From an uncultured Rubrobacteraceae bacterium (GTDB lineage Bacteria > Actinomycetota > Rubrobacteria > Rubrobacterales > Rubrobacteraceae), in the NCBI GenBank assembly GCA_902806065.1, contig CADCVE010000029.1, forward strand, positions 1 through 44,227: a stretch of 44,227 bases of DNA, read 5' to 3'. This document shows, piece by piece, positions 48 to 22,444 of this stretch. The notes under the pieces were generated by a model. The model made no database searches and was not told the DNA's origin. It saw nothing but the letters and a program-made list of their open reading frames with translations. Position 1 is the stretch's first letter, and the number at the start of each line of letters is the position of its first letter. The translations under genes were made by a program, and so were the position numbers.

Positions 48-1091
48 TCACCCCTTCTTCTTGCCCAGCATCTTCGCCCGGAGGCGCCCGATCTTGCCCA
101 GCAGCTTCCAGCTCCTCGAGCCCTGTATCTCCTGCATCTGGTGTTTGAGGTCCTGGTTCTTTTTCTGCAGTAGCTCGGTCCTTCGCTGCTCCTTGGAGAG
201 GCTGCTCTTCAAACTCTGGATCTGATGCTCAAGTTCCCAGGTCCTCCGGACCTGGATTGCCGTTTCGGTCTCTTCCCTTTCGAGGCTAGCCCCGAATATA
301 CGTGGCTGGCTCGATGTCCCGCGGTCGGCGGCCGTGTAGCCATCGAGCTCTCTCCACTGCTCTTCGATACGGTCGAGCACCCACTGCTCGGCGACGTGAT
401 CCTTCCTCTTCTCGATAAGCGCAACCTGCTCCTCGCTGAACGGTTCTTTCGCTCGCCGCTCACCCTCGAACTCGCGGGACATCTCCCGCCAGGCTTTGCG
501 TATAGAATCGTCGAATTCAAGGTCCAGGAATCGGGAAATCAGCGGGATGCAGTCCTCGTTTCTATAGAAGAAGTCGTGGTAGCTGACGATCAGAACTTTA
601 GGGTTCAGGCCGCTTTCTATAAACTCACGAGTGCTCCGCATCGTGCGGTTCCAGAACTCTACCCCCATCTCGAAACCGTTCTTACCCCCGAGCCATACGT
701 CCTCCGGGTTCTTCGACCTCGCATCGAAAGACTCAACGACCTCCTCGATGGGACGATACGTCAAGATGAAGCTCGCCCCGGGGTTGTTCAGGTAGATCGC
801 CGGGAGAAGCCTCGCGTAGCCCGGGTGCTTGTCACCGATCCACTTCAGCTTTGCCGGGTCCTTCCTTGCAAGAAGCTCCGCATGGTACTCCAGCGGTATG
901 TTCGTCTCCCCACTACGCTGCTGAGGCTCGTAGTCCAGAATCCTGTCGAAGGTAAAGAAGCTCGAGTCGATCTTCCGAGGGACGTACTTGTAGCGCTCCC
1001 TACACACCAGTATCTCCTGGTGTTGGTTCAGATAGTCGGCGAACGCCGTGGTCCCGCTCCTCGCAGGGCCTGAGACAAACAGGAGTTTCAT
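48..1091 (-). CDS. Sulfotransferase with C-terminal coiled coil and SRSW tail
   Basis: Likely transfers sulfate from PAPS to a sugar hydroxyl of the surface glycan, in the cytoplasm. The 5'-phosphosulfate loop GPARSGTT is at residues 8-15 and the 3'-phosphate motif, YRPIEEVVES, is at about 112-121. It is a close paralog of the gene at 8687-9733: both share RERYKYVP near residue 31 and the IGDK-P-GY segment. After the catalytic domain, residues about 270-324 are a heptad-rich coiled coil, and the protein ends in SRSWKLLGKIGRLRAK plus a lysine-rich end. The ATG is preceded by AAGGATG about nine bases upstream. A promoter lies at 1150-1179, and the gene diverges from the tandem pair at 1442 and 2864. 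The acceptor is unknown. The fold call is firm; the tail is shared with other genes in the window. Confidence 0.88.
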   Translation of the reverse strand: MKLLFVSGPARSGTTAFADYLNQHQEILVCRERYKYVPRKIDSSFFTFDRILDYEPQQRSGETNIPLEYHAELLARKDPAKLKWIGDKHPGYARLLPAIYLNNPGASFILTYRPIEEVVESFDARSKNPEDVWLGGKNGFEMGVEFWNRTMRSTREFIESGLNPKVLIVSYHDFFYRNEDCIPLISRFLDLEFDDSIRKAWREMSREFEGERRAKEPFSEEQVALIEKRKDHVAEQWVLDRIEEQWRELDGYTAADRGTSSQPRIFGASLEREETETAIQVRRTWELEHQIQSLKSSLSKEQRRTELLQKKNQDLKHQMQEIQGSRSWKLLGKIGRLRAKMLGKKKG

Positions 1092-1149
1092 AGCAATTCA
1101 TCCTTCGCAAGTAACTAGCTCGAGCTTGCTCACGCCTCTTACCGCTCGC

Positions 1150-1179
1150 AGTATACTCACCCAACTTCCGCTTTGTAAA
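1150..1179 (-). promoter_or_regulatory. Sigma-70-type promoter for the sulfotransferase at 48-1091
   Basis: On the minus strand, TTTACA (1174-1179) is followed by 18 bases and TATACT (1150-1155). This is a good match to the housekeeping consensus. The predicted start is about 50 bases upstream of the ATG at 1091, leaving room for the Shine-Dalgarno site. Confidence 0.6.
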
Positions 1180-1372
1180 GGCTGGCAACAATCTCCTCTC
1201 TACGGGCGAGAAGCGACCGATGGATCACTATGCAACGCCTCGTACTCGGGTCGTTGCGAAGGCGCGTAAGATCCTCCACGGCCTCGGGTTTTACGAGCGG
1301 TTCGTCTCCAAACGCCCCGTTAATGCGGTTCGGGTTCGTTCTCCACGGTACGATTGGTCGAGATCTCCGCTA

Positions 1373-1401
1373 TTGACGATCTGCCGGGATGCTTGTAGTC
1401 T
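1373..1401 (+). promoter_or_regulatory. Promoter of the first tandem sulfotransferase gene
   Basis: TTGACG (1373-1378), 17 bases, then TAGTCT (1396-1401). The same arrangement, with the shared string GATGCTTGTAG around the -10 box, occurs before the second tandem copy at 2791-2819. This supports both sites as real promoters and argues against a start upstream of 1442. Confidence 0.6.
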
Positions 1402-1441
1402 TTGTACAGTTAGGCGGAAAGCTCGTAGAAGGGGAGCGTTT

Positions 1442-2683
1442 ATGCCGATCTTCCGATTCAAAAAAGCCATTGATATTGCGCGAAACGCAAAGGTGTTCCT
1501 GGACCTTGAGAGCGGCATCGCGCGCGGCATGCCACCGAATGGCGGACCCCAAGCCGGGGACCCGAAGAACGCTGGCCGCCACATGAGAAGGCAAAAGAAG
1601 ATGATCAAGGGCAGAGACCAGGAGATCTCCCGGCTGAAGAGCGAACTGCGCGCCGCCAAGGAGAGGGCATATGCGGAATCCGGCGCCTCGCGCATCGCTC
1701 TAGCGGACGCTATGCAATACGAGGAGCAGGCCGAGGATCTAAGGAACGTCCGACAGCACATAAACGCGCAGAAGAACAGGCTCAAGAGCAAAGACCACGA
1801 ACTCTTCCAGCTGAAGAACGAGGCCCGCGACATCATGGAGCGGCTGGCGAGCCTCCAGGATGAGCCTCCGACCCCCCTTTCGAAGGAGCCGGAGGTGGGT
1901 ACGCTGCCCGACTTCCTCGTCATCGGGGCGCAAAAGTGCGGGACTACCACCCTCTACCACCACCTCACCCAACACCCCCACGTCGGGCGCGCCGCCACGA
2001 AGGAGTTGCACTACTTCGACAACTACTTCGACAAGAGCGTCGAGTGGTACCGGCGGTGCTTCCCGCCGCCCAAGTGGACAGACGGACGGAGGACCATTAC
2101 CGGGGAAGCCACGCCCAAGTACCTGAATCATCCGGCCGTGCCCGAGAGGGCGGCGGCGGTGGTCCCGCGGGCCAAGCTGATCGCGCTGCTCAGGAACCCG
2201 GTAGACAGGACTTATTCCAGCTTCCACCACTCGGCAAGGAACGGGCGGCGCGAGGACATGGGCTTCGAAGAAGCCGTGGAAGCGTCCCTAGGGTTCGCAG
2301 AAGCGGAGAAGACACAGCCGTTCGGCGAAGAAGACGATGCTCCCGTACGCAAGCACGATCTACTCGACATCAACGGCCTGATAAAGAGGAGCATCTACGT
2401 GGATCAGCTTCAGAGGTGGTCGAGATTCTTCAGCGACGAGCAGATGCTCGTGCTAAAGAGCGAGGACTTCTTCGAGCGCACGTCGGAGACGCTCGGACGC
2501 GTCTTGGACTTCCTTGGCCTGCCCGACTGGGAACCCGAAACGGAGTCCGAGACCTCGAGGGTCCGCAACAAGGGCACCTACAAGCAAGGGATGGCTCCGG
2601 CCACCAGACGACGGCTAGAGGAGTACTTCGAGCCTCACAACCAGAGGCTCTACGAGTATCTTGGCGTAGACTTCGGATGGTAG
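1442..2683 (+). CDS. Sulfotransferase with N-terminal tag and coiled coil (tandem copy 1)
   Basis: A 413-residue sulfotransferase of the heparan N-/O-sulfotransferase-like type. The PAPS loop GAQKCGTT is at 162-169 and the 3'-phosphate motif LRNPVDRTYS is at 250-259. The end, with GTYKQGM and a YFEPHNQRLYE-type tail, is typical of this subfamily. Residues 1-29 form the shared tag (MPIFRF... VKVFL-like ... GIARG), and about 50-140 is a charged coiled coil containing KMIKGRDQEISRLKSEL. The ATG at 1442 is chosen over an in-frame upstream ATG at 1220. It has AAGGGGAG just upstream, it lies downstream of the promoter at 1373-1401, and the next gene begins at the same motif. It is a tandem duplicate of 2864-4075. 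Confidence 0.88.
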   Translation: MPIFRFKKAIDIARNAKVFLDLESGIARGMPPNGGPQAGDPKNAGRHMRRQKKMIKGRDQEISRLKSELRAAKERAYAESGASRIALADAMQYEEQAEDLRNVRQHINAQKNRLKSKDHELFQLKNEARDIMERLASLQDEPPTPLSKEPEVGTLPDFLVIGAQKCGTTTLYHHLTQHPHVGRAATKELHYFDNYFDKSVEWYRRCFPPPKWTDGRRTITGEATPKYLNHPAVPERAAAVVPRAKLIALLRNPVDRTYSSFHHSARNGRREDMGFEEAVEASLGFAEAEKTQPFGEEDDAPVRKHDLLDINGLIKRSIYVDQLQRWSRFFSDEQMLVLKSEDFFERTSETLGRVLDFLGLPDWEPETESETSRVRNKGTYKQGMAPATRRRLEEYFEPHNQRLYEYLGVDFGW

Positions 2684-2790
2684 CCCGCCGGGCGGGATAG
2701 GACTCCTCTAGCAGCGGGACGCTCGTACTCTCATTCAACACCATCGTTTTGAAGTATAGGGCCGTCAGCCTTCGAAGGTGGCCCTCAATG

Positions 2791-2819
2791 TTGACGACGC
2801 GGGGAGATGCTTGTAGCCT
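2791..2819 (+). promoter_or_regulatory. Promoter of the second tandem sulfotransferase gene
   Basis: TTGACG (2791-2796), 17 bases, then TAGCCT (2814-2819). Spacing and sequence match the site at 1373-1401, so the regulatory region was duplicated with the gene. The two copies can therefore be transcribed independently. Confidence 0.6.
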
Positions 2820-2863
2820 CTGTACGGACCGTGGGACAGACGGGCCACAGAAAAGGAGCGTTC

Positions 2864-4075
2864 TTGCCGATCTTCAAATTTAGCAAAGCTTTGAGCATAG
2901 CACGGGGCGTAAAGGTGTTCCTGAACCTGGAGGGTGGTATCACGCGTGGTGCGCCAATGAATGTCGGGCGCGGCGGGCACCAGGCTAAGGATCTCAAGGG
3001 CGCCCGGCAGCGTACAAGCAAGCGGACGAGCAAGCTCAAGGACAGGGACCAGGAGATCTCCCGGCTGAAGGACGAACTGCGCGCCGTGGAGGAGCGGGTG
3101 GGTCCGCAGGGCGGCGTCTCGCATGATGCGTTGCCAAGCGCCGAGCAACGCATGGAACAGGCCGAGGACCTGAAAAACGCCCGACAGCACATAAGCAAGC
3201 AGAGAAAGCTGCTCAGGAGCAAAACTCGGGAGATCTTCCAGATAAAAAACGAGTTACGCGACGCCAGGGAGCGGCTGGAAAGCCTCCAGGATGCGCCTCC
3301 GACTTCCCTTTCGGAGGAGCCGGAGGTGGGTACGCTGCCCGACTTCCTCATCATCGGGGCGCGAAAGTGCGGGACCAGTACCCTCTACTACCACCTCACC
3401 CAGCACCCCCACGTCGAGCGCGCCGTGAGGAAGGAGTTGCACTTCTTCGATAACCACTTCGACAAGGGCGTCGAGTGGTACCGACAATGCTTCCCGCCAC
3501 CCAGGTGGGAGGACAGGCGCAGGACCATTGCCGGGGAAGCCACGCCCAAATACCTGTTCCACCCGGCCGTGCCCGAGAGGGCGGCGGCGGTGGTCCCGCA
3601 GGCCAAGCTGATCGCGCTGCTCAGGAACCCGGTAGACAGAGCTTACTCCCACTATCACGGCGAGGTAAGACACGGGCGCGAGAACCGGAGCTTTGAAGAA
3701 GCCGTGGAAGAGGAGAAAGTACGCCTATCCGGCGGGGAGAGCGCGGCTCCCGAGCACGAAGCCGCCCCTCCGCCCTTCGGTTACCTGGCCGGTAGTATAT
3801 ACGTAGATCAGCTCCAGAGGTGGTCGAGGTTCTTTAGCGACGAGCAGATGCTCGTGCTAAAGAGCGAGGACTTCTTCGAGCGCATGCCCGAGCAAATCGA
3901 GCGAATCCTGGCCTTCCTCGGCCTGCCGGCCTGGCAACCAGAGACCCTGGAGGTCCGCAATGAGGGTACCTACAGGCAGGAGATGGATCCGGCCACCAGA
4001 CGACGGCTAGAGGAGTACTTCGAGCCTCACAACCGGAGGCTCTACGAGCACCTAGGTGTGGACTTCGCATGGTAG
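2864..4075 (+). CDS. Sulfotransferase with N-terminal tag and coiled coil (tandem copy 2)
   Basis: A 403-residue paralog of the preceding gene. The PAPS loop GARKCGTS is at 165-172 and LRNPVDRAYS is at 253-262. The tag is LPIFKFSKAL followed by a helix ending GGITRG, residues 1-29. A coiled coil follows at about 50-140 with DQEISRLKDEL, as in copy 1. The start is a TTG at 2864 with AAAAGGAG seven bases upstream; an ATG at 2807 lies inside the promoter's -10 region and is rejected. The central acceptor-facing stretch (about residues 268-300) differs strongly from copy 1, while flanking blocks are nearly identical in DNA. The two copies probably have different acceptor positions, but this is inference. 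Confidence 0.87.
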   Translation: MPIFKFSKALSIARGVKVFLNLEGGITRGAPMNVGRGGHQAKDLKGARQRTSKRTSKLKDRDQEISRLKDELRAVEERVGPQGGVSHDALPSAEQRMEQAEDLKNARQHISKQRKLLRSKTREIFQIKNELRDARERLESLQDAPPTSLSEEPEVGTLPDFLIIGARKCGTSTLYYHLTQHPHVERAVRKELHFFDNHFDKGVEWYRQCFPPPRWEDRRRTIAGEATPKYLFHPAVPERAAAVVPQAKLIALLRNPVDRAYSHYHGEVRHGRENRSFEEAVEEEKVRLSGGESAAPEHEAAPPPFGYLAGSIYVDQLQRWSRFFSDEQMLVLKSEDFFERMPEQIERILAFLGLPAWQPETLEVRNEGTYRQEMDPATRRRLEEYFEPHNRRLYEHLGVDFAW

Positions 4076-4160
4076 CCTCGAAGTCTCGACTTATCGATCA
4101 GTGGGACAGGGAGCTACAGGAGATGAGGAGAAACAACACCGCAAGGAGCGATTTACACGC

Positions 4161-5465
4161 TTGAGGGGGGAGCATTACCAGGGAGCATCCGGCATCGAGC
4201 ACCGTACAACGCAGGTGGACGATAAGTACGATATCGTGTTCTTCTGGAAGTCGAACGATACCGGCATATACGGCAGAAGACAGGATATGCTCGTCAAGTA
4301 CCTGTCCCGGTCGCCGAGGGTCAACCGGATCGTCCATTTCGACCGCCCGATACCGCTCGGCTTCCTGTGGTCCCTCCTAAAGCTGGGCAAGGCCCGCAAG
4401 TTCGACCAATCAAACCCGATCTTCTTCCAGACCCTCTCAAGACTCCTGAAGCTGAAGAACTCCGAGAAGGTCAAGTACTACACGTTCGTGTACATTCTGG
4501 GGATCGGCCTCTTTGGCCGGCTCCTCGGATTATTTCTCCCGAAGAAGCGCCACTACACAAAGTACCTCAAACGTGTCCTGTCGAAGAACAGCATAGGAAA
4601 GCGAAGGACCATCTTCTGGGTCTGTCCGGGAAACTTCGACTTCCCACAGATTGTGGAAGCCTTCGATCCGGGGTTCGTAGTCGCCGATGTGATCGACGAC
4701 CAGAGAGCCTGGTTCGAGCCGGACTCCCCCCGGGCCGCGAAGCTGACCGGGAACTACGAAGAAATTTTAGGCACGAGCGACCTGGTTCTGGCGAACTGCG
4801 AGAGTGTGCGGCAGTCTATGCTCCCATACTCCGAAGACGTACACCTGATCCCGAACGCGAGCGAGCTACCGGACGTACACGAGACGCGCCAAGGGAAGCC
4901 CAAAGAGTTGAGGAAGATCGAGGGTCCTATCCTGGGCTACGTGGGGAACCTCTCCGTGCGTATCGACATCGACCTGCTCGAACACCTCGCCCGGAGCCGT
5001 CCCGACTGGAATGTCGTGCTGATCGGCTCCGTTCATCTTTCGAGAGACATCTTGAAGAGGCTGGACGTCTTCGAGAACGTCCACTTTCTGGGCGTCAAGC
5101 AGTACACCGACGCCCAACGCTACATCAGAAACTTCGACGTGGCCATCATCCCGCATCTGGACAATGAGATGACCCGTTCGATGAGCCCCTTGAAACTGTA
5201 CGTTTACTATTCCATGAACGTCCCCATTGTAACGACCGAGATCGAGAACCTCGCCGAGCTACGAGACCTGGTGTACGTAGCGCGAGACAAGAACGACTTT
5301 GTAGAGAAGGTCGAGTTGGCCCTGCAAAGGGGTAAAACCCCCGGGTCGGGCACGAAGCGCATGGACCTCCTTAGAGAGTACTCGTGGGAGACGAGGGTAG
5401 AGCAGATTTTGAGCCTGATCGACCAGGAATCCCGCGGGGCCTTCGCGGAACGTAACGTGGTTTAG
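4161..5465 (+). CDS. GT-B glycosyltransferase, TuaH-like
   Basis: Predicted cytoplasmic sugar transferase of the GT-B fold. The N-terminal half starts with YDIVFFWKSNDTGIYGRRQD. The C-terminal half carries the nucleotide-sugar domain GPILGYVGNLSVRIDIDLL, then VVLIGSVH and a SMSPLKLYVYYSMNVPIVTT stretch, as in teichuronic-acid TuaH-like enzymes. The start is uncertain: TTG at 4161 has AAGGAG twelve bases upstream, but in-frame GTG at 4101 and ATG at 4056 also exist, the latter overlapping the preceding gene. It follows the tandem sulfotransferases on the same strand and is probably cotranscribed with copy 2. The sugar and linkage cannot be read from sequence. Confidence 0.8.
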   Translation: MRGEHYQGASGIEHRTTQVDDKYDIVFFWKSNDTGIYGRRQDMLVKYLSRSPRVNRIVHFDRPIPLGFLWSLLKLGKARKFDQSNPIFFQTLSRLLKLKNSEKVKYYTFVYILGIGLFGRLLGLFLPKKRHYTKYLKRVLSKNSIGKRRTIFWVCPGNFDFPQIVEAFDPGFVVADVIDDQRAWFEPDSPRAAKLTGNYEEILGTSDLVLANCESVRQSMLPYSEDVHLIPNASELPDVHETRQGKPKELRKIEGPILGYVGNLSVRIDIDLLEHLARSRPDWNVVLIGSVHLSRDILKRLDVFENVHFLGVKQYTDAQRYIRNFDVAIIPHLDNEMTRSMSPLKLYVYYSMNVPIVTTEIENLAELRDLVYVARDKNDFVEKVELALQRGKTPGSGTKRMDLLREYSWETRVEQILSLIDQESRGAFAERNVV

Positions 5466-5560
5466 AGGAACTACAAAGCGAACGGCGCGTCTCGCAAGAC
5501 GCCCGGTACCTGGAACTCCGGCCTCTCGGCGAGGAATAGGGCTGCGGATTCCCGGAATAG

Positions 5561-6260
5561 GCGGATGTGAGCGGCAAGCCACGCCACGTCCGCGACAGCG
5601 CACGCCTTAGCGCAGCCGAAAAAGACGAGATAGACATCTGGTACCGCGATCGCCTAAGATCGATGATAGCCGTGGACGAGATAGTCGCTTCCATCGTCCG
5701 GGAGTTCGAAGCAACGGGGGAGCTCGACAACACTTACTGTTCTTTACTTCGGACAATGGCTGGATGCAGGGCGAGCACCGCATCGAGAAGTTCAAGAAAC
5801 ACCCCTAGAAGAATCGGCGAAGACTCCCCTCTTCGTCCGGGGTCCGGGGATCGCTCCTGGCTCGCGGATAGACCGGCTGGCACTTGACACCGACTACGCC
5901 CCGACCTTCGCGCAACTCGCGGGGCTCCCCTTCGAAGCCGATGGACGCTCGCTTGCGCCGCTCTTACACGGGGACAATCCGCCCTCCTGACGCACGCCCG
6001 TGCTCCTCGAAAGCCTCGACGTTGACGACCCCGACCCGCCGCCCGTCTACGAAGGCATACGCACCGAAGACCACAAATACGTCGAGTACGGTACGGAGGA
6101 CAAGGAACTCTACGATATGAACGCCGATCTCTACGAGCTAGAGAACCGGGCCCAAGCGGGTAGCCCGGACCCCGACACCGCCAGTCGGCTGCAAGAGCGG
6201 TTGAACGCGCTCAAGGACTGTAGCGGGCAGTCTTGCCGGGACGCCGAGGATGCCCCGTAG
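5561..6260 (+). pseudogene. Sulfatase remnant, C-terminal part, frameshifted
   Basis: Three reading frames together spell the C-terminal half of a type I (alkaline-phosphatase superfamily) sulfatase. The pieces are SGKPRHVRDSARLS, RLRSMIAVDEIV, then FFTSDNGWMQGEHRIEKF, then LFVRGPGIAPGSRIDRLALD, DYAPTFAQLAGLP, and finally YEGIRTEDHKYVEYG and LYDMNADLYELENRAQ. Lesions: a one-base loss near 5739 (NTY to FFTSDN), a second shift near 5804, and TGG to TGA at 5988-5990 where PPSWRT is expected. The catalytic N-terminal half with the formylglycine Cys/Ser is absent. It is a dead gene amid ten sulfotransferases, so the locus once carried a desulfating enzyme. Confidence 0.85.
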
Positions 6261-6350
6261 CGCTACGGCAATCCACCTTCAAGGACACGTAAGCCTCCGG
6301 GCATGTAGAACCGAGAGACAAAGCACTCTCTTGCCTCTCTCGACTCTTCG

Positions 6351-7247
6351 TTACCTCCCCAGTATCCTGACCCGGAGAAGGCCGAGCTTGGTAAGCAATC
6401 GCCAGCCCCTGGAGCTCTGTATGTCTTGCAGTTGCTGCTTTAGGCGCCGGTTCTCCTGCGCCAGGGCTTTGTTCTCTTGTCGCTCGATCTCCGCTTCTAC
6501 GCGAGCTTCTTCGACCAGCTCGACATAACGGGCCACGATCGGGGGCAGGTCGAGAACATCTAGGAACTCCGCGAGCTTTGCGTTCTGCTGTTTGAGACGC
6601 GAGGGGACTAGTATACCGAGCCCGTGGAAACCCGGAACCCGCATCACCTCTACCTCCTGCTTCATCTGCTCCAGGAAATCTTCGACGGCAGTGAGCACGC
6701 CGTTGCGCGGGTCGTTTTCGGAGGTCGCGTTGGGGAAGTTCGGGTTTAACCCGTCCTCTTCGACGAGATCAGAAGATCCCGGCCGCATCCCCTTCCTCTC
6801 GTACGGGTTACGGTATTCGTCCGGGATGCCGTCGGGGTCGTAGTAGCCGTCGCGGCGCCCGTAAGGCCAGCCGACGTCGTGCAGCATCACGAGAGGGAAA
6901 GGCTGGGACAAGGCCTTGCAGCGTTCCTCGATCAGCTTGAGCTCATGGAAGACCGTGTACCAGTTGTGGTCGCCGTCGATGAACACCGCGTCGAACCGGT
7001 CGATCTCCGGCAAGGCATCGAGGCTCGGAGCCTGGTGGAAGATCAGATGCTCCCCGTATTGTTCTTGCCAGGCGGCAACGTTGTACTTCGGCAGTGGGTC
7101 GATCACGTGTAGCCTCGCGCCGTGCCGCCGACAGAACTCCAGAAGCCTTCGGGTGTTGGGTCCGTAATCGGACCCTATCTCGACTATGCTCTCTGGTCGC
7201 AGCGCCTCGAGAACCGGACCGGTGATCGTGTCCCAAAAACGATACAT
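6351..7247 (-). CDS. SAM methyltransferase with C-terminal coiled coil and SRGW tail
   Basis: A class I SAM methyltransferase of the Methyltransf_24-like type. Motif I VEIGSDYG is at residues 22-29, an acidic second-strand end (HVID) follows, and FIDGDHNW is at 89-96. Later come HDVGWPYGRRDGYY and MRVPGFHGLGIL. Residues about 235-278 are a coiled coil, and the protein ends SRGWRLLTKLGLL plus a short basic end, the same tail as on the sulfotransferases at 48-1091 and 8687-9733. GGAG sits just upstream of the ATG. Presumably it O-methylates the same glycan, perhaps as a chain-end modification. The gene is transcribed with the minus-strand sulfotransferases upstream of it or from the 127-base gap before it. 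Confidence 0.85.
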   Translation of the reverse strand: MYRFWDTITGPVLEALRPESIVEIGSDYGPNTRRLLEFCRRHGARLHVIDPLPKYNVAAWQEQYGEHLIFHQAPSLDALPEIDRFDAVFIDGDHNWYTVFHELKLIEERCKALSQPFPLVMLHDVGWPYGRRDGYYDPDGIPDEYRNPYERKGMRPGSSDLVEEDGLNPNFPNATSENDPRNGVLTAVEDFLEQMKQEVEVMRVPGFHGLGILVPSRLKQQNAKLAEFLDVLDLPPIVARYVELVEEARVEAEIERQENKALAQENRRLKQQLQDIQSSRGWRLLTKLGLLRVRILGR

Positions 7248-7374
7248 ATCTCCTCACCTCCTCGCGGTTGAGATCAAAGCTCGACCCTCATACGCCGCTC
7301 CCGACCGTCTCTCGCGCGAACGTGTCCCAGGCTTGTCGGATACGTGCGAACGTCCATTATCTGGGCGAGCTACC

Positions 7375-8523
7375 CTACCAGTCATGGTTCTCTTCGTAGC
7401 CAAGCTCTACAAGCAGGTCGCCAGCGGCTACCTTGAAGTCCCGTTTGTCCTTCTCGGTGAAGGTGTTCTTCCAGTCGCCCGCTATGCCCTTCCTGAAGAA
7501 CGAGGCGGCCTCTTGGCCCCTTTTCCTGCCCTCCGACAGCTTCTCGAAGCTGGCCGCGTCCACGCACTGTCGCACGACCCGCTCACTCGCGTCGGCTCCG
7601 AGGAACTGCAGCAACCGTCCGATCTCCTCTTCAGGCCTCTCCAGAAGATCCTCGTACCTCACCTCCGCATAGTTTGCGCCGAGTAGGGCTGGGCCGTCTT
7701 TCGCGGCCTTGCTTACTTTATCGCTCCACTTCGCGGCGTGGTTCGTGAGCCATCCCTCCGGGAATATCCCTTCGCCCTTCTCCAGCAACGCCCGGGGGTC
7801 CTGACGATAAGCCTCGCGCTTGGCCAGTTGATCCGGATTAATCTTACCGCCACCGCCCTGGTCCTCGGCCTGGTTCCACTTGTGGTGCGTCTGAGAGACC
7901 GCCACGTCCCGGCCGTCCCTTACGATGTGGATAACCTTCGCCTCAGAGAATATCGTACCGATCTCTTCCACGATCTCCGCTTCGTGCAAGACCGTCTTGT
8001 CCCCCACCAGCTTTTTACCGCTCTTCAAAAGCTGCTGGGTAAGGAAGTACTCAACGGCCAGTCGCGTCAGGTTGGCCAGGTGCTGGTCCGCGTCGTCACG
8101 CTTGCTCCAGACCGACCTCTCTACCCAGTACCTCAGGTCCTCCGAGCTTGCTATGGCGTTGTAAAGAGAGGTCGGCGGGTAGCTCGCCCGCCTCTTTTTT
8201 AGTTGCTCTTGCCTCCACTCCCGGCCGAAGGGGCGGCCCTCACCCTGGCAGAGTATCTCGGGGTGAGAGTCGAGCAGCTTCATCAACCAGGTCGTCCCGG
8301 ATTTCTGATGGCCTACGATAAAGAACACCGGCGTGCTCTCTCGAGGAGAACGAGGCACGCGCGCGACTTCGCGCGTCGGATCCAACTCCCCGTCCTTGCC
8401 GGCCACCCGCCGCAGAGCCTGTTTACCCGAGGCCACGCGCGACCCGAAGCCCGCGCCCCGGCTAAAGAAGGTTCTCACCTTCTTCGCCACCTCGGAGGCT
8501 GTGCGGTTCTTGAAGACTGGCAC
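7375..8523 (-). CDS. Sulfotransferase with N-terminal tag
   Basis: A PAPS-dependent sulfotransferase of 382 residues. Loop GHQKSGTT is at 71-78 and VRDGRDVAVS is at 201-210, with KLVGDKT between them. Residues 1-22 carry the shared tag: MPVFKNRTASEVAKKVRTFF. The region 23-65 is basic and probably a flexible linker. The start is GTG at 8523 with GAGGAAGGA upstream. The catalytic domain is closest to that at 15635-16756, which lacks the tag, so tag and catalytic domain have recombined. It lies between the methyltransferase and the sulfotransferase at 8687, with 127- and 163-base gaps, so it may have its own promoter. Confidence 0.87.
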   Translation of the reverse strand: MPVFKNRTASEVAKKVRTFFSRGAGFGSRVASGKQALRRVAGKDGELDPTREVARVPRSPRESTPVFFIVGHQKSGTTWLMKLLDSHPEILCQGEGRPFGREWRQEQLKKRRASYPPTSLYNAIASSEDLRYWVERSVWSKRDDADQHLANLTRLAVEYFLTQQLLKSGKKLVGDKTVLHEAEIVEEIGTIFSEAKVIHIVRDGRDVAVSQTHHKWNQAEDQGGGGKINPDQLAKREAYRQDPRALLEKGEGIFPEGWLTNHAAKWSDKVSKAAKDGPALLGANYAEVRYEDLLERPEEEIGRLLQFLGADASERVVRQCVDAASFEKLSEGRKRGQEAASFFRKGIAGDWKNTFTEKDKRDFKVAAGDLLVELGYEENHDW

Positions 8524-8686
8524 TCAGCTATCCTTCCTCTCTACCACTACGCTCAACGACTGCGGAGTCCTGCGTGGAACAGGTTTGCACACCCGCGATC
8601 CGCACCATACTCTAGCAAAAGTACGGCCGTGAGTAGCATCGTCTAGCCTACCTGTCGAGCCCTCTCTGTTCGTCTGCTTACGCCCT

Positions 8687-9733
8687 TTACCGTTTCCCGA
8701 CCACCCGGGCTTTGACGGAGCCAAGCTTCTTCAGCAGCCTCCAGGTTCTGGAATCTTGCATGTCCCGCATCTGCCGTTCCAGGCTCCGCGTTTGGAGTGT
8801 CAACTGCTGGTTCTGCCTGATTAGCTGGCGGGCACGGCGCTGCGCGTCCGCCAGGTTGCTCTTCAGCTCTTCAACCCGCCGCTCGAGCTGTTGAGCTTCC
8901 GGGGTTCGAGCTTCGGCCAGTGCCGTCACGGGCGCCGCAGCGGGCTCGCGTCGCTCGTCGCGAGGCGTGAGGACGGTATCTTCTCCTCCCGTGAGGATCT
9001 CGGGCTCGCTCCATTGTCTTTCGATACGGTCCAGGATCCACGCCTCGGCGACGTGGTCCTTGTTCTTCTCGACGAACGCTGCCTGTTTCCTGCCTAGCGG
9101 CTCCTTGCGACGCCGTTCGCCCTCGAACTGGCGAGACATCTCCTTCCAGGCTTCGCGTACTGATTCGTCGATGTCGACATCCAGGAACCGGGAGATCAGC
9201 GGGATGCAAACTTCGTTCCGGTAGAAGAAGTCGTGGTAGCTGATGATCAGGACGTTCGGGTTCAGACCGCTCTCTATGAAGTCACGCGTCATCTCGAGGG
9301 CGAGGTTCCAGCGTTGGACCCCTTTCTCAAAGTCGAGATGGCCGGGCCAGAGATCCCCTTCGTCCCTCGCGCGCGCCTCGAACGACTCTGCGACCTCCTC
9401 AACGGGACGGTACAACACGATAAACCGCGCGCCGGGGTTGTACTCCCGCAGGCTCTCGTAGTGCCTGAAGTAACCCGGGTTCTTGTCGCCGATCCACCTC
9501 AGCCTCCCGGAGTCCTTCTTTTCAAGGAGTTCGACGTGATACTCCCTCGGTACGTTCGTCTCCCCTTCTCTGTAATCCAATATCCTATCGAAGCTCAGAT
9601 GATCTATCGTGACCTCCGTCGGGACGTACTTATATCTTTCTCTACAGACCAGCACTTCCGGATGTTGGTTGAGATATTCGGCGAACGCCGTGGTCCCGCT
9701 TCTCTGGCATCCCGCCACGAACAGGGGTTTCAA
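8687..9733 (-). CDS. Sulfotransferase with C-terminal coiled coil and SRTW tail
   Basis: Paralog of 48-1091. The PAPS loop GCQRSGTT is at 8-15 and LYRPVEEVAES is at 107-117, with RERYKYVP and IGDKNPGY conserved. The tail half contains a long coiled coil (about 265-325) with repeated Arg-Gln heptads, ending in SRTWRLLKKLGSVKAR and a basic end. The ATG at 9733 is 22 bases after the stop of the sulfotransferase at 9756-10799, so the two form an operon. The acceptor is unknown. The large number of charged heptads suggests that the tail dimerises or docks to a partner. Confidence 0.87.
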   Translation of the reverse strand: MKPLFVAGCQRSGTTAFAEYLNQHPEVLVCRERYKYVPTEVTIDHLSFDRILDYREGETNVPREYHVELLEKKDSGRLRWIGDKNPGYFRHYESLREYNPGARFIVLYRPVEEVAESFEARARDEGDLWPGHLDFEKGVQRWNLALEMTRDFIESGLNPNVLIISYHDFFYRNEVCIPLISRFLDVDIDESVREAWKEMSRQFEGERRRKEPLGRKQAAFVEKNKDHVAEAWILDRIERQWSEPEILTGGEDTVLTPRDERREPAAAPVTALAEARTPEAQQLERRVEELKSNLADAQRRARQLIRQNQQLTLQTRSLERQMRDMQDSRTWRLLKKLGSVKARVVGKR

Positions 9734-9755: not shown

Positions 9756-10799
9756 TCATCCGCCTCGAGCTGGGTAGAACTCGTTGAGGAGAGGGGCGGT
9801 TATCCTCTCGACGATCTCTACCTGCTGCTCGGTCAAGTCCTCTCTCCAACCGCCGGGGCTGGCTTTGCGGTAGAATTTGCCCTCTCCCTTCTTATCCTCG
9901 GGGAGGTTCTCCCACGAGCGTCTCTCTACCACCCGGGCCAGCTCCTCCTGGTCGAAGGGCAACCGTAGCGTCGAGTAGATGTGCTCCATGACCCCCAGGG
10001 TGTAGGCCTTCAAGTCCTCGTACTTGACCAGCACCTTGTGCCCCTTATGGGCTTCGTAAGCCTGCCTGGCATTCCCCGCGAACTTCAGGTAATGGGTCGC
10101 CCGTTCCTCCACGAAGGCGTCCGGCTCCCTGTCAGCCAGGGCGGCGTTGTTCATGACCTTCGCGGCCCAGTTTCCCTCCTTTGCGGCGTCTAGGCCGGAG
10201 GCGACCACGTCCCTGGGGTCTCGGACCACGAAGATCATGCGGCTCTCCGGCAGAGCTTCCATAAGCAACGGAGCTCCTATGGAGCCGTTCGGTTCCTTGA
10301 CCACCAGGTACCCGTCTCGCTCCTCGTCGGAGAAGGTCGCGTTCGCCGCGTCCAAAACAAAAGACCGTATGGACCCCAACCAGACCTCTTTGTTGAGACC
10401 CAGAATGAAGTGCTTATCTTTGCTGTCTTCGTCTCTGGGCCGTTGATAGTAGTAGTGGCCGAAGAGCGCGCCCACGCGCGGCTCGCGCCACATAGCGTAC
10501 CTTTCGAGATCTGACATCATGGCAGCGAGCCAGGTGCTCCCCACCCTCGCGGTGCCGAAGATCCAGACGATGTTCTCCGGGTTTATGCCGCCCTCTCTCT
10601 GCGTCCCGGCGCCGTTCGCGAGAAGCTTTACCCTCAACCGGGCGATCTCCTGGTCTTTGCTCTCGATCATCCGGCGCTGCTCCTCCATCTGCTGCTCGGG
10701 CCCCAGTGGCGTCCCGCGCGTGATGCCGCCTTCCAGCTTCAAGAACGCTTTTACGTCCTGCGCCAACTCGAACATCGTGCTGGATCGAAAGACCGGCAA
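9756..10799 (-). CDS. Sulfotransferase with N-terminal tag and coiled coil
   Basis: A 347-residue sulfotransferase of the NIVWIFGTARVGSTW type. Loop GTARVGST is at 82-89 and VVRDPRDVVAS is at 191-201, with VVKEPNGSIGAPLLMEALP before it. The tag is residues 1-29: MPVFRSSTMFELAQDVKAF, then a helix ending GGITRG. Residues 40-60 hold RRMIESKDQEIARL, which matches the coiled coil of the unrelated-subfamily gene at 1442. The start is TTG at 10799 with GAGAGGG upstream. It is the first gene of a two-gene operon with 8687-9733. It is related to 17756-18871, 18926-19984 and 25221-26210. Confidence 0.87.
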   Translation of the reverse strand: MPVFRSSTMFELAQDVKAFLKLEGGITRGTPLGPEQQMEEQRRMIESKDQEIARLRVKLLANGAGTQREGGINPENIVWIFGTARVGSTWLAAMMSDLERYAMWREPRVGALFGHYYYQRPRDEDSKDKHFILGLNKEVWLGSIRSFVLDAANATFSDEERDGYLVVKEPNGSIGAPLLMEALPESRMIFVVRDPRDVVASGLDAAKEGNWAAKVMNNAALADREPDAFVEERATHYLKFAGNARQAYEAHKGHKVLVKYEDLKAYTLGVMEHIYSTLRLPFDQEELARVVERRSWENLPEDKKGEGKFYRKASPGGWREDLTEQQVEIVERITAPLLNEFYPARGG

Positions 10800-12257: not shown

Positions 12258-12328
12258 GTCTTTGTTCTCCTTTCGTTGACGAGGTGAGAAAGAAAGGTAG
12301 CCCCCCCGTGTTGGAACTCTTCCCATTG

Positions 12329-17759: not shown

Positions 17760-18871
17760 GGCGTGCCGTTTGGGTAGAACTCTTTGAGGAGTGGGGCGGT
17801 TATCTTCTCGACGGTCTCTATCTGTTCTGGGGTCAGATCCTCGCGCCACGAGCCCGGGCTCGCCTTGCGGTAGAACTTGCCCTCCCCCTTCTCCTCCTCC
17901 GGTATCCTCTCCCACGAGTGCTTCTCCACCGCCCGCCGCAACTCCTCGTCGTCCACCTCTATCTCCAGGGTGGAGTAGATGCGCCGCATCGTGCCAAGGG
18001 CGTCCGCTCGAAGGTCCTCGTAGCGCACCAGCACCTTGCGGCCCCGGTGGGCGTCGTAGGCTGTCTTGGTGCTCTCTATCGCTTGCAGGTAAGACTTGGC
18101 CCGCTTCCTTACGAAGGCTTTCGGGTTCTTCTCCGCGCGGGTCTCCGGGTTCAGTTCCCCCTTGTTTCTGTTCTCGTATTGCCAGCCCCCCTTGCGCTTC
18201 GCGTCTATGCTGGAGGCGGCGACGTCCCTGGGGTCGCGGACGAGCAGGATCATGCGGCTCTCCGGCAGCGCCTCCATCAGCAACGGCGCCCCCGCCGACC
18301 CGTTGGGCTCCTTGACCACCAGGTAGCTGTTGGAGCCGACCGCCTCCGGGAACCGGCCGGTCGCCTCGCTCAGGACGAAGGTGCGTATGGAGCCCATCCA
18401 GCTCTTTCTGTAGCCGTCCCCGAGGATGTAGTGCTTGCCGGCCTTACCTATGAGATGTTTGGCCCGATCGTAGTAGAGGTTGCCAAAGAGCGCCCCCACT
18501 AGCGGCTCGCGCCAGACGGCCTGTCCCTCTAGCTCCTCCATTATTTGCGAGAGCCAGGTGCTGCCCGTGCGCGCCGAACCGAAGATCCAGACGACATTTC
18601 CGGCCCTTATGCCACCGCTCTCCCCCCCCACACTCGGCCGCCGGGTCCTCGCCCCGAGCGTCCAGCCCTTCCTAGCTATGCGCAGCCCGACCTGCTTAAG
18701 CCTCCGCACACGATTCTCGCTCCGCCCGAACGCCTTCGAAACAGAAACACCCGAAGCCCCTGACGCAGGTTTCACCGCCACGCCGCGGAGATTCTGAATA
18801 ACGCTCGCCCTAGAAAATGCCTTTATGCCCCGCACTATTCTGAGGGCCGTGCGGCTCTCAAACACCGGCAT
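17756..18871 (-). CDS. Sulfotransferase with N-terminal tag
   Basis: A 371-residue sulfotransferase of the NVVWIFGSARTGSTW type. Loop GSARTGST is at 98-105 and LVRDPRDVAAS is at 210-220, with VVKEPNGSAGAPLLMEALP before it. The tag is MPVFESRTALRIVRGIKAF at 1-19, followed by a basic region to about 85. The ATG at 18871 has AGGAGG nine bases upstream; a longer frame to 18910 is rejected because the tag starts here. It lies 54 bases after the paralog at 18926 and is coupled to the GT2 gene. It ends with the same EKITAPLLKEFYP segment as its paralogs. Confidence 0.87.
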   Translation of the reverse strand: MPVFESRTALRIVRGIKAFSRASVIQNLRGVAVKPASGASGVSVSKAFGRSENRVRRLKQVGLRIARKGWTLGARTRRPSVGGESGGIRAGNVVWIFGSARTGSTWLSQIMEELEGQAVWREPLVGALFGNLYYDRAKHLIGKAGKHYILGDGYRKSWMGSIRTFVLSEATGRFPEAVGSNSYLVVKEPNGSAGAPLLMEALPESRMILLVRDPRDVAASSIDAKRKGGWQYENRNKGELNPETRAEKNPKAFVRKRAKSYLQAIESTKTAYDAHRGRKVLVRYEDLRADALGTMRRIYSTLEIEVDDEELRRAVEKHSWERIPEEEKGEGKFYRKASPGSWREDLTPEQIETVEKITAPLLKEFYPNGTP

Positions 18872-18925
18872 CTGTGGGTCCCTCCTATCGAAAACTGCAT
18901 GCGCACGCAATACGTCATTGTACCC

Positions 18926-19984
18926 TCAAGAAGGATAGAGTTCGCTCAGCAGGGGAGCGGTGATCTTCTCCACAGTCTTTATCTGCTCCGGGGTCAGGTC
19001 ATCACGCCATCCTCCGGGCGTCGCCTTACGGTAGAACTTGCCCTCTCCCTTCTCATCTTCGGGGATGTTCTCCCAGGAGTGCTTCTCTACTACCCGCCGC
19101 AGGGTCTCATCCGATACCGGTATCTCCAGGGACGAGTAGATTCGACGCATCGTACCGATAGCGTCCGCCCTGAGCTCTTCGTAGCGCACCAGGACCTTGC
19201 GGCCTTGGTGGGCATCGAAGGCTTTCTTGGCCTCCCCGACGTTCTTCACATACTTCCTGGAGCGCCCGCGGGCGCTTGGGCCGGAAGAGCCTTTCTTCTC
19301 CGGCCCGCCTTTCCAGCCGCCCTCCTTATGAGCGTCTATCCAGGAGGCCACGACGTCCCTGGGGTCGCGGACGAGCAGGATCATGCGGCTCTCCGGCATC
19401 GCCTCCATCAGCAACGGCGCCCCCGCCGAGCCTCCGGGTTCTTTGATCACCAGGAATCTGTTCGGATCTGCTGCCTCGGGGAATCGGGCTCCGGCCCCAT
19501 CCAAGACGAAGGACTTTATGGACCCCAGCCAAGTCTCCCTATACCGGGGTGACAGGATGAAGTGCTTACCTGTGCGCTCCTCGAGCCGCAGATGATTGGG
19601 GTCGAAGAGCGCACCCACCCAGGGCTCGAACCATACGGCATGGCCTTCGAGGTCCCCCATCATCCCCGAGAGCCAGGTGCTACCCGTGCGCCCGGCGCCA
19701 AAGATCCAGATGATGCTCTCCGGTCTTATGTCACCGGCTTCCGTCACCGATCCACGGCCCCTTTGTAGCTTCCGGCCTTGCCTTGCTATCAACCGCCCGG
19801 CCCGTTTGAGCTCCGAGGCCCGAGCGCCGATCTGCCTCGATACGCCGGATGCTACTAGCGCTGTAAATGCTTTTGGTCCGGGTCTTTGCTCCTGCTTTCC
19901 ACCACGAACGATGCCCGCCTCCAAGTTTAGAAATACCCTTATACCTCGCACTGTAACTACCGAACGATTCTTGAATACCGGCAC
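18926..19984 (-). CDS. Sulfotransferase with N-terminal tag, first gene of a five-gene operon
   Basis: A 352-residue sulfotransferase, paralog of 17756-18871. Loop GAGRTGST is at 96-103, and LLVRDPRDVVAS follows VIKEPGGSAGAPLLMEAMP. The tag starts VPVFKNRSVVTVRGIRVF and continues to GIVRG at residue 28. The start is GTG at 19984 with AGGAGG upstream; a longer frame to 20098 would cross the promoter at 20019-20047. It heads the run 19984 to 14271: sulfotransferase, sulfotransferase, GT2, sulfotransferase, GT4. These five presumably act on one repeat unit. Confidence 0.87.
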   Translation of the reverse strand: MPVFKNRSVVTVRGIRVFLNLEAGIVRGGKQEQRPGPKAFTALVASGVSRQIGARASELKRAGRLIARQGRKLQRGRGSVTEAGDIRPESIIWIFGAGRTGSTWLSGMMGDLEGHAVWFEPWVGALFDPNHLRLEERTGKHFILSPRYRETWLGSIKSFVLDGAGARFPEAADPNRFLVIKEPGGSAGAPLLMEAMPESRMILLVRDPRDVVASWIDAHKEGGWKGGPEKKGSSGPSARGRSRKYVKNVGEAKKAFDAHQGRKVLVRYEELRADAIGTMRRIYSSLEIPVSDETLRRVVEKHSWENIPEDEKGEGKFYRKATPGGWRDDLTPEQIKTVEKITAPLLSELYPS

Positions 19985-20018
19985 TCGAAGTTCCTCCTGT
20001 CTAACACACTCACCGCAT

Positions 20019-20047
20019 ATTATCCCAAAAGATCCAGGTCCTCTCAA
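20019..20047 (-). promoter_or_regulatory. Promoter of the five-gene sulfotransferase/glycosyltransferase operon
   Basis: On the minus strand, TTGAGA (20042-20047), 17 bases, then GATAAT (20019-20024). The predicted start is about 30 bases before the GTG at 19984, with AGGAGG between. Confidence 0.6.
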
Positions 20048-20160
20048 AACACCGTAGCCGTGACACCCCTGTACTTCGCCGGCACGTCCGGTATCCACTA
20101 ACCTAATACCCTTGTTGGCATGACGTGATGTCTACGGTATTGTTAACGGCTATGGCGTTG

Positions 20161-20249: not shown

Positions 20250-21134
20250 TTGTCTTCCACTTACACGTCCGGCGTAGAGGAACCTACAAAGGGACCTATA
20301 TACACGTCCGGCGCGAAGGGACCTATAGAGGGGATTTCGAGCGCGCTGGCCGAGCTCTACCGCCGGAGATGGTTGGCGGTTTACTTCGCGCAGCGCGAGC
20401 TGTCTCGCAGTTACCGGAGCTCTTACCTGGGCATGTTGTGGGCTCTTCTGGGTCCCTTGCTCCAGATCGTGCTGCTCACGATAGTCTTCTCAGAGATAAT
20501 CGGGATCCGGTTCAGAGAAGTAACGGGCGACAGCACGCTGAACTTCGGCCTGTTTCTATACTGCGGGCTCATCCCCTTTCTAGCTTTCTCCGAGACGCTC
20601 AACAAAGCCTCGAACAGCGTTCGGAGCAACGCGGCCCTGGTGCAGAAGGTGGTATTTCCGCTGGAGATCCTCCCGCTGACCAGGGCGATTACGGTCCTGA
20701 TAAACATGGTATTCGGACTGGGAGTGCTCATACTCGTCGTCGTGCTGCTGGAGGGCCAGCTGCGTTGGACGATCCTCTTGATACCTCTGCTCGTGGCGCT
20801 GCAGTTGGTGTTCACCCTGGGCCTGAGCTACCTGTTCGCGGTCATCGGCACCTACCTGCCTGATACGAGAGAGACCCTGCGCTCGTTCGTGCGTGCGCTG
20901 TTTTTCATCACCCCGATCATCTGGCCGGCGGGTAGAGTGCCAGAGAACCTCAGCTTCCTGGTGGACTATAATCCGCTGGCGTTCCTGGTCGGCGCTTACC
21001 GGAGCCTGGTTTTGGAAGGCGAGTTCCCGGACCTGTCGGGGGCCCTCTACTTCTCCGTCTTTTCGATCGTGTTATTAGTCGTGGGGTTCGTTCTGTTCGT
21101 GCGGGTCAAGCAAAAGTTCGCGGATTTGATCTGA
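20250..21134 (+). CDS. Polysaccharide ABC exporter, permease (Wzm-like)
   Basis: An ABC-2 type permease of 294 residues in the cytoplasmic membrane. It would form, with the next gene, the exporter for the lipid-linked glycan. A family-typical interface segment, YFAQRELSRSYRSSYLGMLW, precedes about six hydrophobic spans. VQKVVFPLEILP and FFITPIIWPAG are hallmark loops of the Wzm/TagG group. The TTG start at 20250 has GAGGAG six bases upstream. The first 30 residues are unusual: an imperfect tandem duplication (TYTSG... then IYTSG...) from a 39-base DNA repeat at 20262-20333. Its stop overlaps the ATPase start by one base (TGATG). Confidence 0.92.
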   Translation: MSSTYTSGVEEPTKGPIYTSGAKGPIEGISSALAELYRRRWLAVYFAQRELSRSYRSSYLGMLWALLGPLLQIVLLTIVFSEIIGIRFREVTGDSTLNFGLFLYCGLIPFLAFSETLNKASNSVRSNAALVQKVVFPLEILPLTRAITVLINMVFGLGVLILVVVLLEGQLRWTILLIPLLVALQLVFTLGLSYLFAVIGTYLPDTRETLRSFVRALFFITPIIWPAGRVPENLSFLVDYNPLAFLVGAYRSLVLEGEFPDLSGALYFSVFSIVLLVVGFVLFVRVKQKFADLI

Positions 21135-22444
21135 TGCCCGTAGTCTCTTTAGAAGAGGTCTCCAAGAAGTACCGGATCTTCCCGAGCACACGTGCCCAGT
21201 TGAAGAGGGTCTTGAGCCTCGGTAAGAGCAAGGCCGAACACGAGTTCTGGGCCTTGAAGGACGTGAACATGGAGGTGGAACCGGGCACGGCCCTCGGCAT
21301 CCTGGGCCGCAACGGGGCCGGCAAGAGCACCCTCCTGAAGATAGTCTCCGGTGTTCTGCAACCCACATACGGCAAGGTCAGGGTAGACGGCCGCCTGGTG
21401 GCGCTGCTGCAGCTAGGAGCGGGCTTCAACGACGAGTTCACCGGCCGGGAGAACGTCACATTGAACGGCCTGATCCTGGGCATAGATCGCAAAGAGATGC
21501 TGAACCGGTTCGACGAGATAGCAGCCTTCGCGGACATCGGGGAGTTCATGGAACAGCCCCTGAAGACTTACTCCAGCGGCATGCGCGCCCGGCTCGGTTT
21601 CGCCGTCGCGGTAAATGTAAAGCCGGACATACTGCTTGTAGACGAAGCTCTCTCCACCGGAGACGCGGTCTTCAAAGCCAAGGGTATCCAAAAGATGCGC
21701 GATCTACGCGATTCCGGAGCCACTATCTTGTTCGTCTCCCACAGCGCGACCCAGGTGAAGAACTTCTGCACCGAAGCCACGCTACTGCACAAGGGCAGCC
21801 TCGTAGCCCGCGGCGAGACCAGCGAGGTTATAGACTACTATGAGGCCCTGGTCTCAAAATCCGCGACAAAACAGAACGGCCAGCCCGGCCCGGCCCAGCC
21901 ATCGAACTTCGATCTGGGGGACGACGAGGAAGAGGATCTGAAAACCCCGGACTCCAAGGCCTCCGCACTCGACATCAATAGCACGAGCCTGCGCCACGGC
22001 ACGGGAGAGGCAAAGATACAAAGCGTAGAGGTCCTCGACGAAAGCGGCAGGCCCGTAGACCCGGTGGATCCGGACTCCATGCTCACAATCCGGGCACACG
22101 TACAGTACACGCAGGCCGTAGACGATAGTGCCGTCGGCATCGTACTGCGCAATAGAGGGGGTTTGGACATCTTCTCGACCAGTACGGCTGTCGAGGGGAC
22201 TCCGATCGGGAGCAGGAATGCCGGCGAGCGCGTGATCGTGGACTTCTCCTTTCGGGTGCCGCTGAAGCACGGCCGCTATAGCGTGGCCGCCTTCGTCTCA
22301 CGCTCCGGAGCCAAAGTAGACCTGGATTGGGTCGGGGTGGCAGCGGTGTTCAAGATGTCCCGACCATCCGGTAGGGGCAATTTCGCGGGCCTGGTTGACC
22401 TACCCACGCAGGTTCGGCTCGAAGAGCCGGACAGAGCGCGGTAG
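21134..22444 (+). CDS. Polysaccharide ABC exporter, ATPase with C-terminal Wzt-type domain
   Basis: ATPase partner of the permease. Walker A GRNGAGKST is at 58-66, signature YSSGM at 146-150, and Walker B DILLVDEA at 165-172. H-loop VSHSA follows. After a linker (about 245-290) residues 290-425 are an immunoglobulin-like domain (GEAKIQSVEVLDESGRPVD onward) of the Wzt C-terminal type. In E. coli O9a, that domain is known to recognise the modified end of the glycan before export. Here the recognised end group could be methyl or sulfate (inference). The start overlaps the permease stop. Confidence 0.92.
   Translation: MPVVSLEEVSKKYRIFPSTRAQLKRVLSLGKSKAEHEFWALKDVNMEVEPGTALGILGRNGAGKSTLLKIVSGVLQPTYGKVRVDGRLVALLQLGAGFNDEFTGRENVTLNGLILGIDRKEMLNRFDEIAAFADIGEFMEQPLKTYSSGMRARLGFAVAVNVKPDILLVDEALSTGDAVFKAKGIQKMRDLRDSGATILFVSHSATQVKNFCTEATLLHKGSLVARGETSEVIDYYEALVSKSATKQNGQPGPAQPSNFDLGDDEEEDLKTPDSKASALDINSTSLRHGTGEAKIQSVEVLDESGRPVDPVDPDSMLTIRAHVQYTQAVDDSAVGIVLRNRGGLDIFSTSTAVEGTPIGSRNAGERVIVDFSFRVPLKHGRYSVAAFVSRSGAKVDLDWVGVAAVFKMSRPSGRGNFAGLVDLPTQVRLEEPDRAR

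What the first reader, a model, noticed from the sequence alone, without database searches (positions are those of the whole stretch)
48..9733. A shared C-terminal coiled-coil tail on two sulfotransferases and a methyltransferase
48-1091, 8687-9733 and 6351-7247 end in a coiled coil, then Q-[ML]-x-[DE]-[IM]-Q-x-SR-x-W-[KR]-LL-x-K-[LI]-G and a basic end. One of them is an unrelated enzyme fold, so the tail was acquired as a module. SR-x-W tails after coiled coils are known on some polysaccharide glycosyltransferases. No protein here carries both this tail and the N-terminal tag, so the two may be complementary partners.
Basis: partly seen in the sequence, partly recalled or inferred. Interest (0 to 1): 0.75.

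Follow-up and report, generated by a model that had tools for sequence, protein, structure and literature searches.

The report
Swappable docking tail on glycan enzymes
Two sulfate-adding enzymes and one unrelated methyl-adding enzyme in a bacterial surface-sugar gene cluster end in the same exchangeable tail, which also turns out to be present in the well-studied E. coli chain-capping protein WbdD and on many other bacterial sugar-building enzymes, suggesting a common, unnamed way of parking such enzymes where the sugar chain is built.

Summary
The three tails match far beyond chance, and the two folds are unrelated. The tail is a coiled coil, an SRxW[RK] joint and a basic amphipathic helix, set apart from the catalytic domain in the AlphaFold model of the first protein. 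No Pfam or NCBIfam family covers it. The methyltransferase is a chimera: its catalytic part is ~61% identical to fused orthologues in two related genomes, but its last 34 residues match the neighbouring sulfotransferase tail (53%), not those orthologues (17%). Across 39 related genomes the tail sits on sulfotransferases, glycosyltransferases and methyltransferases. The same joint ends the coiled coil of both E. coli WbdD chain terminators. O8 and O9a WbdD share detectable sequence only there, in the region published as binding membrane and polymerase. Sister forms (SRSWRLTxPLR) occur in many phyla. Best reading: a WbdD-like targeting module tethering soluble glycan-modifying enzymes to the inner membrane face beside an ABC-exported polysaccharide (window Wzt has a Wzt_C domain). 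Tail and N-terminal tag never share a protein, but direct pairing is unsupported; alternative anchors is likelier.

The parts
342..1091 (-). Sulfotransferase A, catalytic domain (residues 1-250)
   Evidence: PF13469 E=1.7e-15; AlphaFold; Foldseek to PAPS sulfotransferases
120..281 (-). Sulfotransferase A, coiled-coil helix of the tail (residues 271-324)
   Evidence: single helix after a pLDDT<50 linker at 252-274
51..119 (-). Sulfotransferase A, SRSWK joint and basic amphipathic helix (residues 325-347)
   Evidence: helix break at S325, second helix 326-345; net charge +9, muH 0.48
8753..8899 (-). Sulfotransferase B, coiled coil of the tail (about residues 279-327), 7 residues longer than in A in the aligned coil
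8690..8752 (-). Sulfotransferase B, SRTWR joint and basic helix (residues 328-348)
6552..7247 (-). Methyltransferase C, catalytic domain (residues 1-232)
   Evidence: PF13578 E=1.9e-14; about 61% identical to the N-terminal domain of fused orthologues in G011 and G012
6414..6542 (-). Methyltransferase C, coiled-coil helix (residues 236-278); first part orthologous, last part shared with sulfotransferase A
6354..6413 (-). Methyltransferase C, SRGWR joint and basic helix (residues 279-298)
20250..21134 (+). Wzm-like ABC-2 permease of the glycan exporter
   Evidence: PF01061 E=6e-11
21134..22444 (+). Wzt-like ATPase with C-terminal carbohydrate-binding domain Wzt_C (21989-22402)
   Evidence: PF14524 E=4.6e-27; located
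1442..1540 (+). N-terminal tag (comparison module) on sulfotransferase 1220-2683
2867..2962 (+). N-terminal tag on sulfotransferase 2807-4075
8434..8523 (-). N-terminal tag on sulfotransferase 7375-8523
10704..10796 (-). N-terminal tag on sulfotransferase 9756-10799
18779..18871 (-). N-terminal tag on sulfotransferase 17756-18910
19892..19984 (-). N-terminal tag on sulfotransferase 18926-20098

Best explanation
The tail is an exchangeable targeting module of the kind found at the C-terminal end of the WbdD coiled coil. A short coiled coil (about 43-54 residues, roughly 65-80 A) oligomerises the enzyme and holds its catalytic head away from an anchoring foot. The foot is the SRxW[RK] joint plus a 16-20 residue basic amphipathic helix, which lies on the inner face of the cytoplasmic membrane and/or binds the glycan polymerase-export complex. 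Two soluble sulfotransferases and a methyltransferase are thereby parked where the lipid-linked polysaccharide is extended and then exported by Wzm/Wzt, so that they can modify or cap the growing chain. Shown here: the module, its anatomy by sequence and prediction, its exchange between unrelated enzymes, its presence in both WbdDs, and the Wzt_C exporter. Inferred: membrane or polymerase binding, capping, and length measurement.
For: Shared tail beyond chance. Coil, break at S325, second helix, disordered linker to the catalytic domain. Conserved hydrophobic positions +5, +6, +9, +12, +16 and basic +4, +8, +13, +15 in 18 non-window tails, with S 18/18, W 16/18 and R/K at +4 18/18. Chimera: C catalytic domain 141/229 identical to G012 orthologue, tail 18/34 to A and 17% to orthologues. 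Those orthologues continue past an SRQWR joint into GT2 and GT1 modules, the terminator-coil-polymerase layout described for K. pneumoniae O7 ORF6 (PMC11231755). WbdD O9a has SRSWR at 592 and WbdD O8 at 308, each closing the coiled coil. The tail profile built without them scores 18.8 and 19.5 bits versus at most 8.0 and 10.8 in 2000 shuffles each. O8 and O9a WbdD match significantly only over this region (34% of 113 aa, E=3e-16). WbdD's C-terminal region associates with the membrane through an amphipathic helix and recruits WbdA (PMC3447403, PMC3482155, PMC6286764); coil length sets chain length (PMC5082667). WbdD coil residues 460-591 at about 1.5 A each give about 195 A, matching the published ~200 A and placing SRSWR at the membrane end. 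Wzt_C in 14 of 15 tail genomes versus 13 of 24 others, p=0.01.
Against: WbdD has about 110 residues after SRSWR, of which these tails keep only about 17-20, so the mapped WbdA-binding part may be missing. WbdD residues 1-600 include SRSWR yet are soluble (PMC3447403), so the joint alone does not anchor. Helix amphipathicity is moderate (shuffle fractions 0.04-0.15 for A, B, C). No PAE or oligomer modelling was available. The methyltransferase model is weak (3-sequence alignment, pLDDT 70). Homology to the WbdD motif rests on a short segment. Co-occurrence tests ignore phylogeny and use draft genomes.
Confidence: 0.62

Rival explanations
1. The tail is a protein-docking tag: tails from different enzymes assemble with each other or with one shared scaffold (for example a polymerase glycosyltransferase) into a multi-enzyme complex, without needing the membrane.
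For: S, R, W and R/K are more sharply conserved than a generic amphipathic helix needs. The tails of A, C and B resemble one another across enzyme types, as a shared partner would select. In WbdD the same region lies in the part that recruits WbdA (PMC3482155).
Against: In genome G012 several tails are dissimilar to each other, so a cluster-specific code is not general. The strong basic charge and amphipathic pattern are typical of membrane-surface helices.
Confidence: 0.22
2. Tail and N-terminal tag are complementary halves that bind each other and pair tail enzymes with tag enzymes.
For: Never on one protein in 24 tail ORFs and 38 tag ORFs; neighbouring genes in 13 of 22 cases; genome co-occurrence Fisher p=8e-4 with strict tag hits.
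Against: Genomes with good tags and no tail (G015, G021, G014) and with good tails and no good tag (G024, G032, G061), though several are drafts. Both are glycan-cluster modules, so proximity is expected. Tag plus coil plus enzyme is the mirror image of enzyme plus coil plus tail, which fits alternative anchors. Tails in other phyla were not checked for tags.
Confidence: 0.08
3. The tail only oligomerises the enzymes through the coiled coil; the SRxW end is a helix cap of no further function.
For: Clear coiled-coil helix; a 7-residue indel between A and B, one heptad.
Against: The most conserved residues lie after the coil and are kept in many phyla and on unrelated enzymes, also between enzyme domains.
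Confidence: 0.08

Closest known systems
E. coli O9a and O8 WbdD chain terminators, coil end and C-terminal region
   Same: Coiled coil closed by SRSWR; two terminators with no detectable catalytic-domain similarity share only this region; Wzm and Wzt beside them, as in the window, whose Wzt has Wzt_C; O8 WbdD is a methyltransferase-coil-SRxWR protein like window gene C.
   Different: Window tails end about 17-20 residues after the motif where WbdD has about 110 more; window coils are much shorter than O9a; the module is also on sulfotransferases; the host belongs to a different lineage (probably Rubrobacteraceae, by recollection, not tested).
K. pneumoniae O7 ORF6 and O12 WbbB terminator-coil-polymerase proteins (PMC11231755)
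   Same: The orthologues of gene C in G011 and G012 are methyltransferase-coil-SRQWR-GT2-GT1-GT1 proteins of this layout.
   Different: Window gene C stops at the joint with a sulfotransferase-type tail; ORF6 and WbbB sequences were not compared here.
Unnamed SRSWRLTxPLR tails on glycosyltransferases, methyltransferases and PIG-L deacetylases of many phyla
   Same: Same place at the end of a coiled coil, C-terminal or between enzyme domains; classic form also inside the window's own family (L159).
   Different: Window tails have LLxKLGxLKxR instead of LTxPLR; no Pfam, NCBIfam or found paper names either form.

Membership tests
WbdD-type C-terminal targeting module | sits at the end of a coiled coil that carries a catalytic head | tested here: met
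WbdD-type C-terminal targeting module | SRxWR joint | tested here: met
WbdD-type C-terminal targeting module | about 110-residue region after the joint, shared by O8 and O9a WbdD | tested here: not met
   window tails end 17-20 residues after the tryptophan
WbdD-type C-terminal targeting module | membrane association and polymerase recruitment | not testable with these tools
   published for WbdD only
ABC-transporter-dependent chain terminator | glycan exporter Wzm/Wzt with Wzt_C in the same cluster | tested here: met
ABC-transporter-dependent chain terminator | enzyme caps the non-reducing end of the chain | not testable with these tools
   inferred from architecture only
ABC-transporter-dependent chain terminator | catalytic domain homologous to WbdD methyltransferase | tested here: not met
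   blastp of C against O8 and O9a WbdD aligns convincingly only in the coil/joint region
Sulfotransfer_3 (PF13469) enzymes A and B | profile match over curated cut-off and PAPS-sulfotransferase fold | tested here: met
Methyltransf_24 (PF13578) enzyme C | profile match over curated cut-off and SAM methyltransferase fold | tested here: met

The most novel reading that the evidence does not exclude
The coil-SRxWR-amphipathic foot is a pan-bacterial, exchangeable address tag that assembles cytoplasmic glycan-building and glycan-decorating enzymes into one membrane complex, with WbdD as its only studied example, and enzymes gain or lose a place in the complex by swapping the tag, as the methyltransferase here did.
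Probability: 0.35. Interest if true: 0.8.

Novelty: new variant of a known kind. Interest (0 to 1): 0.62.

Why it matters
The C-terminal part of WbdD is described as structurally uncharacterised (PMC6286764). A motif shared by its coil end, by tails on glycan enzymes of many phyla, and by interchangeable tails on sulfotransferases and methyltransferases gives a concrete short sequence to mutate. It would make testable how soluble glycan enzymes are gathered at the membrane, and it offers a sequence tag for predicting which enzymes of a cluster belong to one assembly complex.

Tried and rejected
Back-translated search of genome contigs with the window tails found no confirmed relative; plasmid tblastn found none; PDB profile search gave only generic coiled coils, which fits that the solved WbdD fragments stop before the motif. 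Paper searches for SRSWRLT and SRSWR gave nothing relevant. Chance similarity of coiled coils was rejected by shuffles. The idea that the tail is an integral part of the catalytic domain was rejected for A by the model, with weaker support for C. A general rule that tails within one genome resemble each other was tested and not upheld. Enzyme-free tail ORFs in L082 and L086 look like frame breaks after a WbsX-like and a GT4-like gene (my reading of the upstream frames), not separate proteins. The key WbdD mapping papers (Clarke 2009, Liston 2015, Hagelueken 2015) are not held.
Full report
Observation. The three ORFs end exactly as described. The match of the methyltransferase tail to the sulfotransferase tails is far above 5000 shuffles and gives E=1e-9 by blastp, with no convincing similarity elsewhere in the proteins. 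The catalytic domains are Sulfotransfer_3 and Methyltransf_24, and the predicted folds match PAPS sulfotransferases and SAM O-methyltransferases. The two sulfotransferases are 55% identical paralogues, so the independent observation is one sulfotransferase tail and one methyltransferase tail. The genome has no further copy.

Anatomy. AlphaFold of sulfotransferase A gives a catalytic domain (1-250), a disordered linker (252-274), one long helix (271-324), a break exactly at S325 of SRSW, and a second helix (326-345). The methyltransferase model is weaker (three sequences, mean pLDDT 70) but shows one long C-terminal helix (236-296) after the catalytic domain. In 18 tails found by profile outside the window, S is invariant, W is kept in 16, R/K at +4 in 18. 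Hydrophobic residues sit at +5, +6, +9, +12, +16 and basic ones at +4, +8, +13, +15, which is an amphipathic helix with basic flanks. Net charge is +6 to +9 in the window tails. The coils of A and B differ by one 7-residue indel.

Module exchange. In 39 genomes of the family, 15 have the tail. It is on Sulfotransfer_3 and Sulfotransfer_2-Sulfotransfer_3 proteins, PF13704 and PF00535 glycosyltransferases, several methyltransferase families, and a methyltransferase-glycosyltransferase fusion. In one GT2-sulfotransferase fusion it lies between the two enzymes. The methyltransferase in the window is a chimera. Its residues 1-232 are 141/229 and 140/232 identical to the N-terminal domains of two 1340-1375 aa proteins in G012 and G011, and the start of its coil is orthologous too. 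Its last 34 residues are 18/34 identical to sulfotransferase A but only 17% identical to the coil-SRQWR joint of those orthologues. The orthologues run on into GT2 and two GT1 modules.

Wider distribution. A DNA pattern for SR[ST]WRLTxPLR hit 31 loci in one-per-species genomes from Proteobacteria, Acidobacteria, Firmicutes and Actinobacteria. All were in open frames, 17 within 20 residues of the C-terminus and the rest mostly between enzyme domains, nearly always after a coiled-coil-like stretch. Domains of 27 of them are glycosyltransferases, methyltransferases, PIG-L deacetylases and one sulfotransferase. This set was chosen by the motif, so it shows where the motif occurs, not how often. 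A pooled profile found tails in 23 of 296 genomes of the phylum, including intermediates and a classic SWRLTRPLR form in the window's own family.

WbdD. The O9a WbdD of E. coli HS reads ...NQQLRQEIEKIHRSRSWRMTKGYRYLG... with S at 592, and the O8 WbdD of E. coli IAI1 reads ...LHQQMADLHNSRSWRITQPLRW... with S at 308. The family tail profile, built without them, scores 18.8 and 19.5 bits; 2000 shuffles of each reach at most 8.0 and 10.8. The two WbdD proteins align significantly to each other only across this region (34% of 113 residues, E=3e-16), the same pattern as in the window: unrelated or very distant catalytic heads on a shared end. Published work places membrane association and WbdA recruitment in the C-terminal region and shows the coil to be a length ruler. 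Residues 460-591 as a coil give about 195 A, close to the published 200 A, so the joint lies at the membrane end (own arithmetic).

Context. The window encodes Wzm and a Wzt with a Wzt_C domain. Wzt_C is in 14 of 15 tail genomes and 13 of 24 others (p=0.01, not corrected for relatedness). In O9a the terminated chain is recognised by Wzt's carbohydrate-binding module. A methyltransferase-coil-SRxWR protein beside such an exporter resembles O8 WbdD in layout, so gene C is a candidate chain terminator; its catalytic domain is not a detectable WbdD homologue and this is inference.

The N-terminal tag. The tag (or a close variant) is on sulfotransferases, three methyltransferases and a pyruvyl transferase. 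Tail and tag never share a protein and are often neighbours, but either occurs in genomes where the other was not found. Tag proteins often run tag, coil, enzyme, which is the mirror image of enzyme, coil, tail (seen, not scored). Two alternative anchors explain mutual exclusion at least as well as a binding pair.

Limits. Membrane binding, oligomer state and capping are inferred. The window tails lack about 90 residues that WbdD has after the joint, and WbdD 1-600, which contains the joint, is soluble. An earlier count gave 14 of 22 tails with a tag gene within 5 kb; the correct count is 13.

Noticed in passing
48-20098 and 25221-26210: About ten sulfotransferase genes lie in one glycan cluster, suggesting a heavily sulfated exported surface polysaccharide.
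   Followed up: partly
L074:7397-10069, L075:12915-14804, L087:4803-6365, L089, L090: Fusions of GT2 with Sulfotransfer_3 and of Sulfotransfer_2 with Sulfotransfer_3, each with the tail inside or at the end.
   Followed up: partly
L150:3759-7886 and L075:7726-11739: Methyltransferase-coil-SRQWR-GT2-GT1-GT1 proteins orthologous to window gene C, a WbbB/ORF6-like terminator-polymerase layout.
   Followed up: yes
L085:5507-5890: A possible stand-alone 49-residue tail protein (MTEEWLLNLTQ...SRAWKLMEALHRIKVRVSGRKGSP) after a sugar epimerase gene; may be a frame break.
   Followed up: partly
L075:11911-12918 and L075:6717-7718: N-terminal tag (or a close variant) on a polysaccharide pyruvyl transferase and on a methyltransferase, so the tag is also a module shared between enzyme types.
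   Followed up: partly
L132:22967-25093 and L182:3757-5034: E. coli O9a and O8 WbdD share significant similarity only from the coil end to the C-terminal region; their methyltransferase domains do not align significantly by blastp.
   Followed up: yes
11550-12326: A secreted protein with glycine-aspartate RTX-like repeats beside the cluster; a similar gene (L150:721-2322) lies near the equivalent cluster of G011.
   Followed up: no
29791-32865: Membrane protein with a DUF6077/DUF6541 region followed by a TPR domain at the cluster edge.
   Followed up: no
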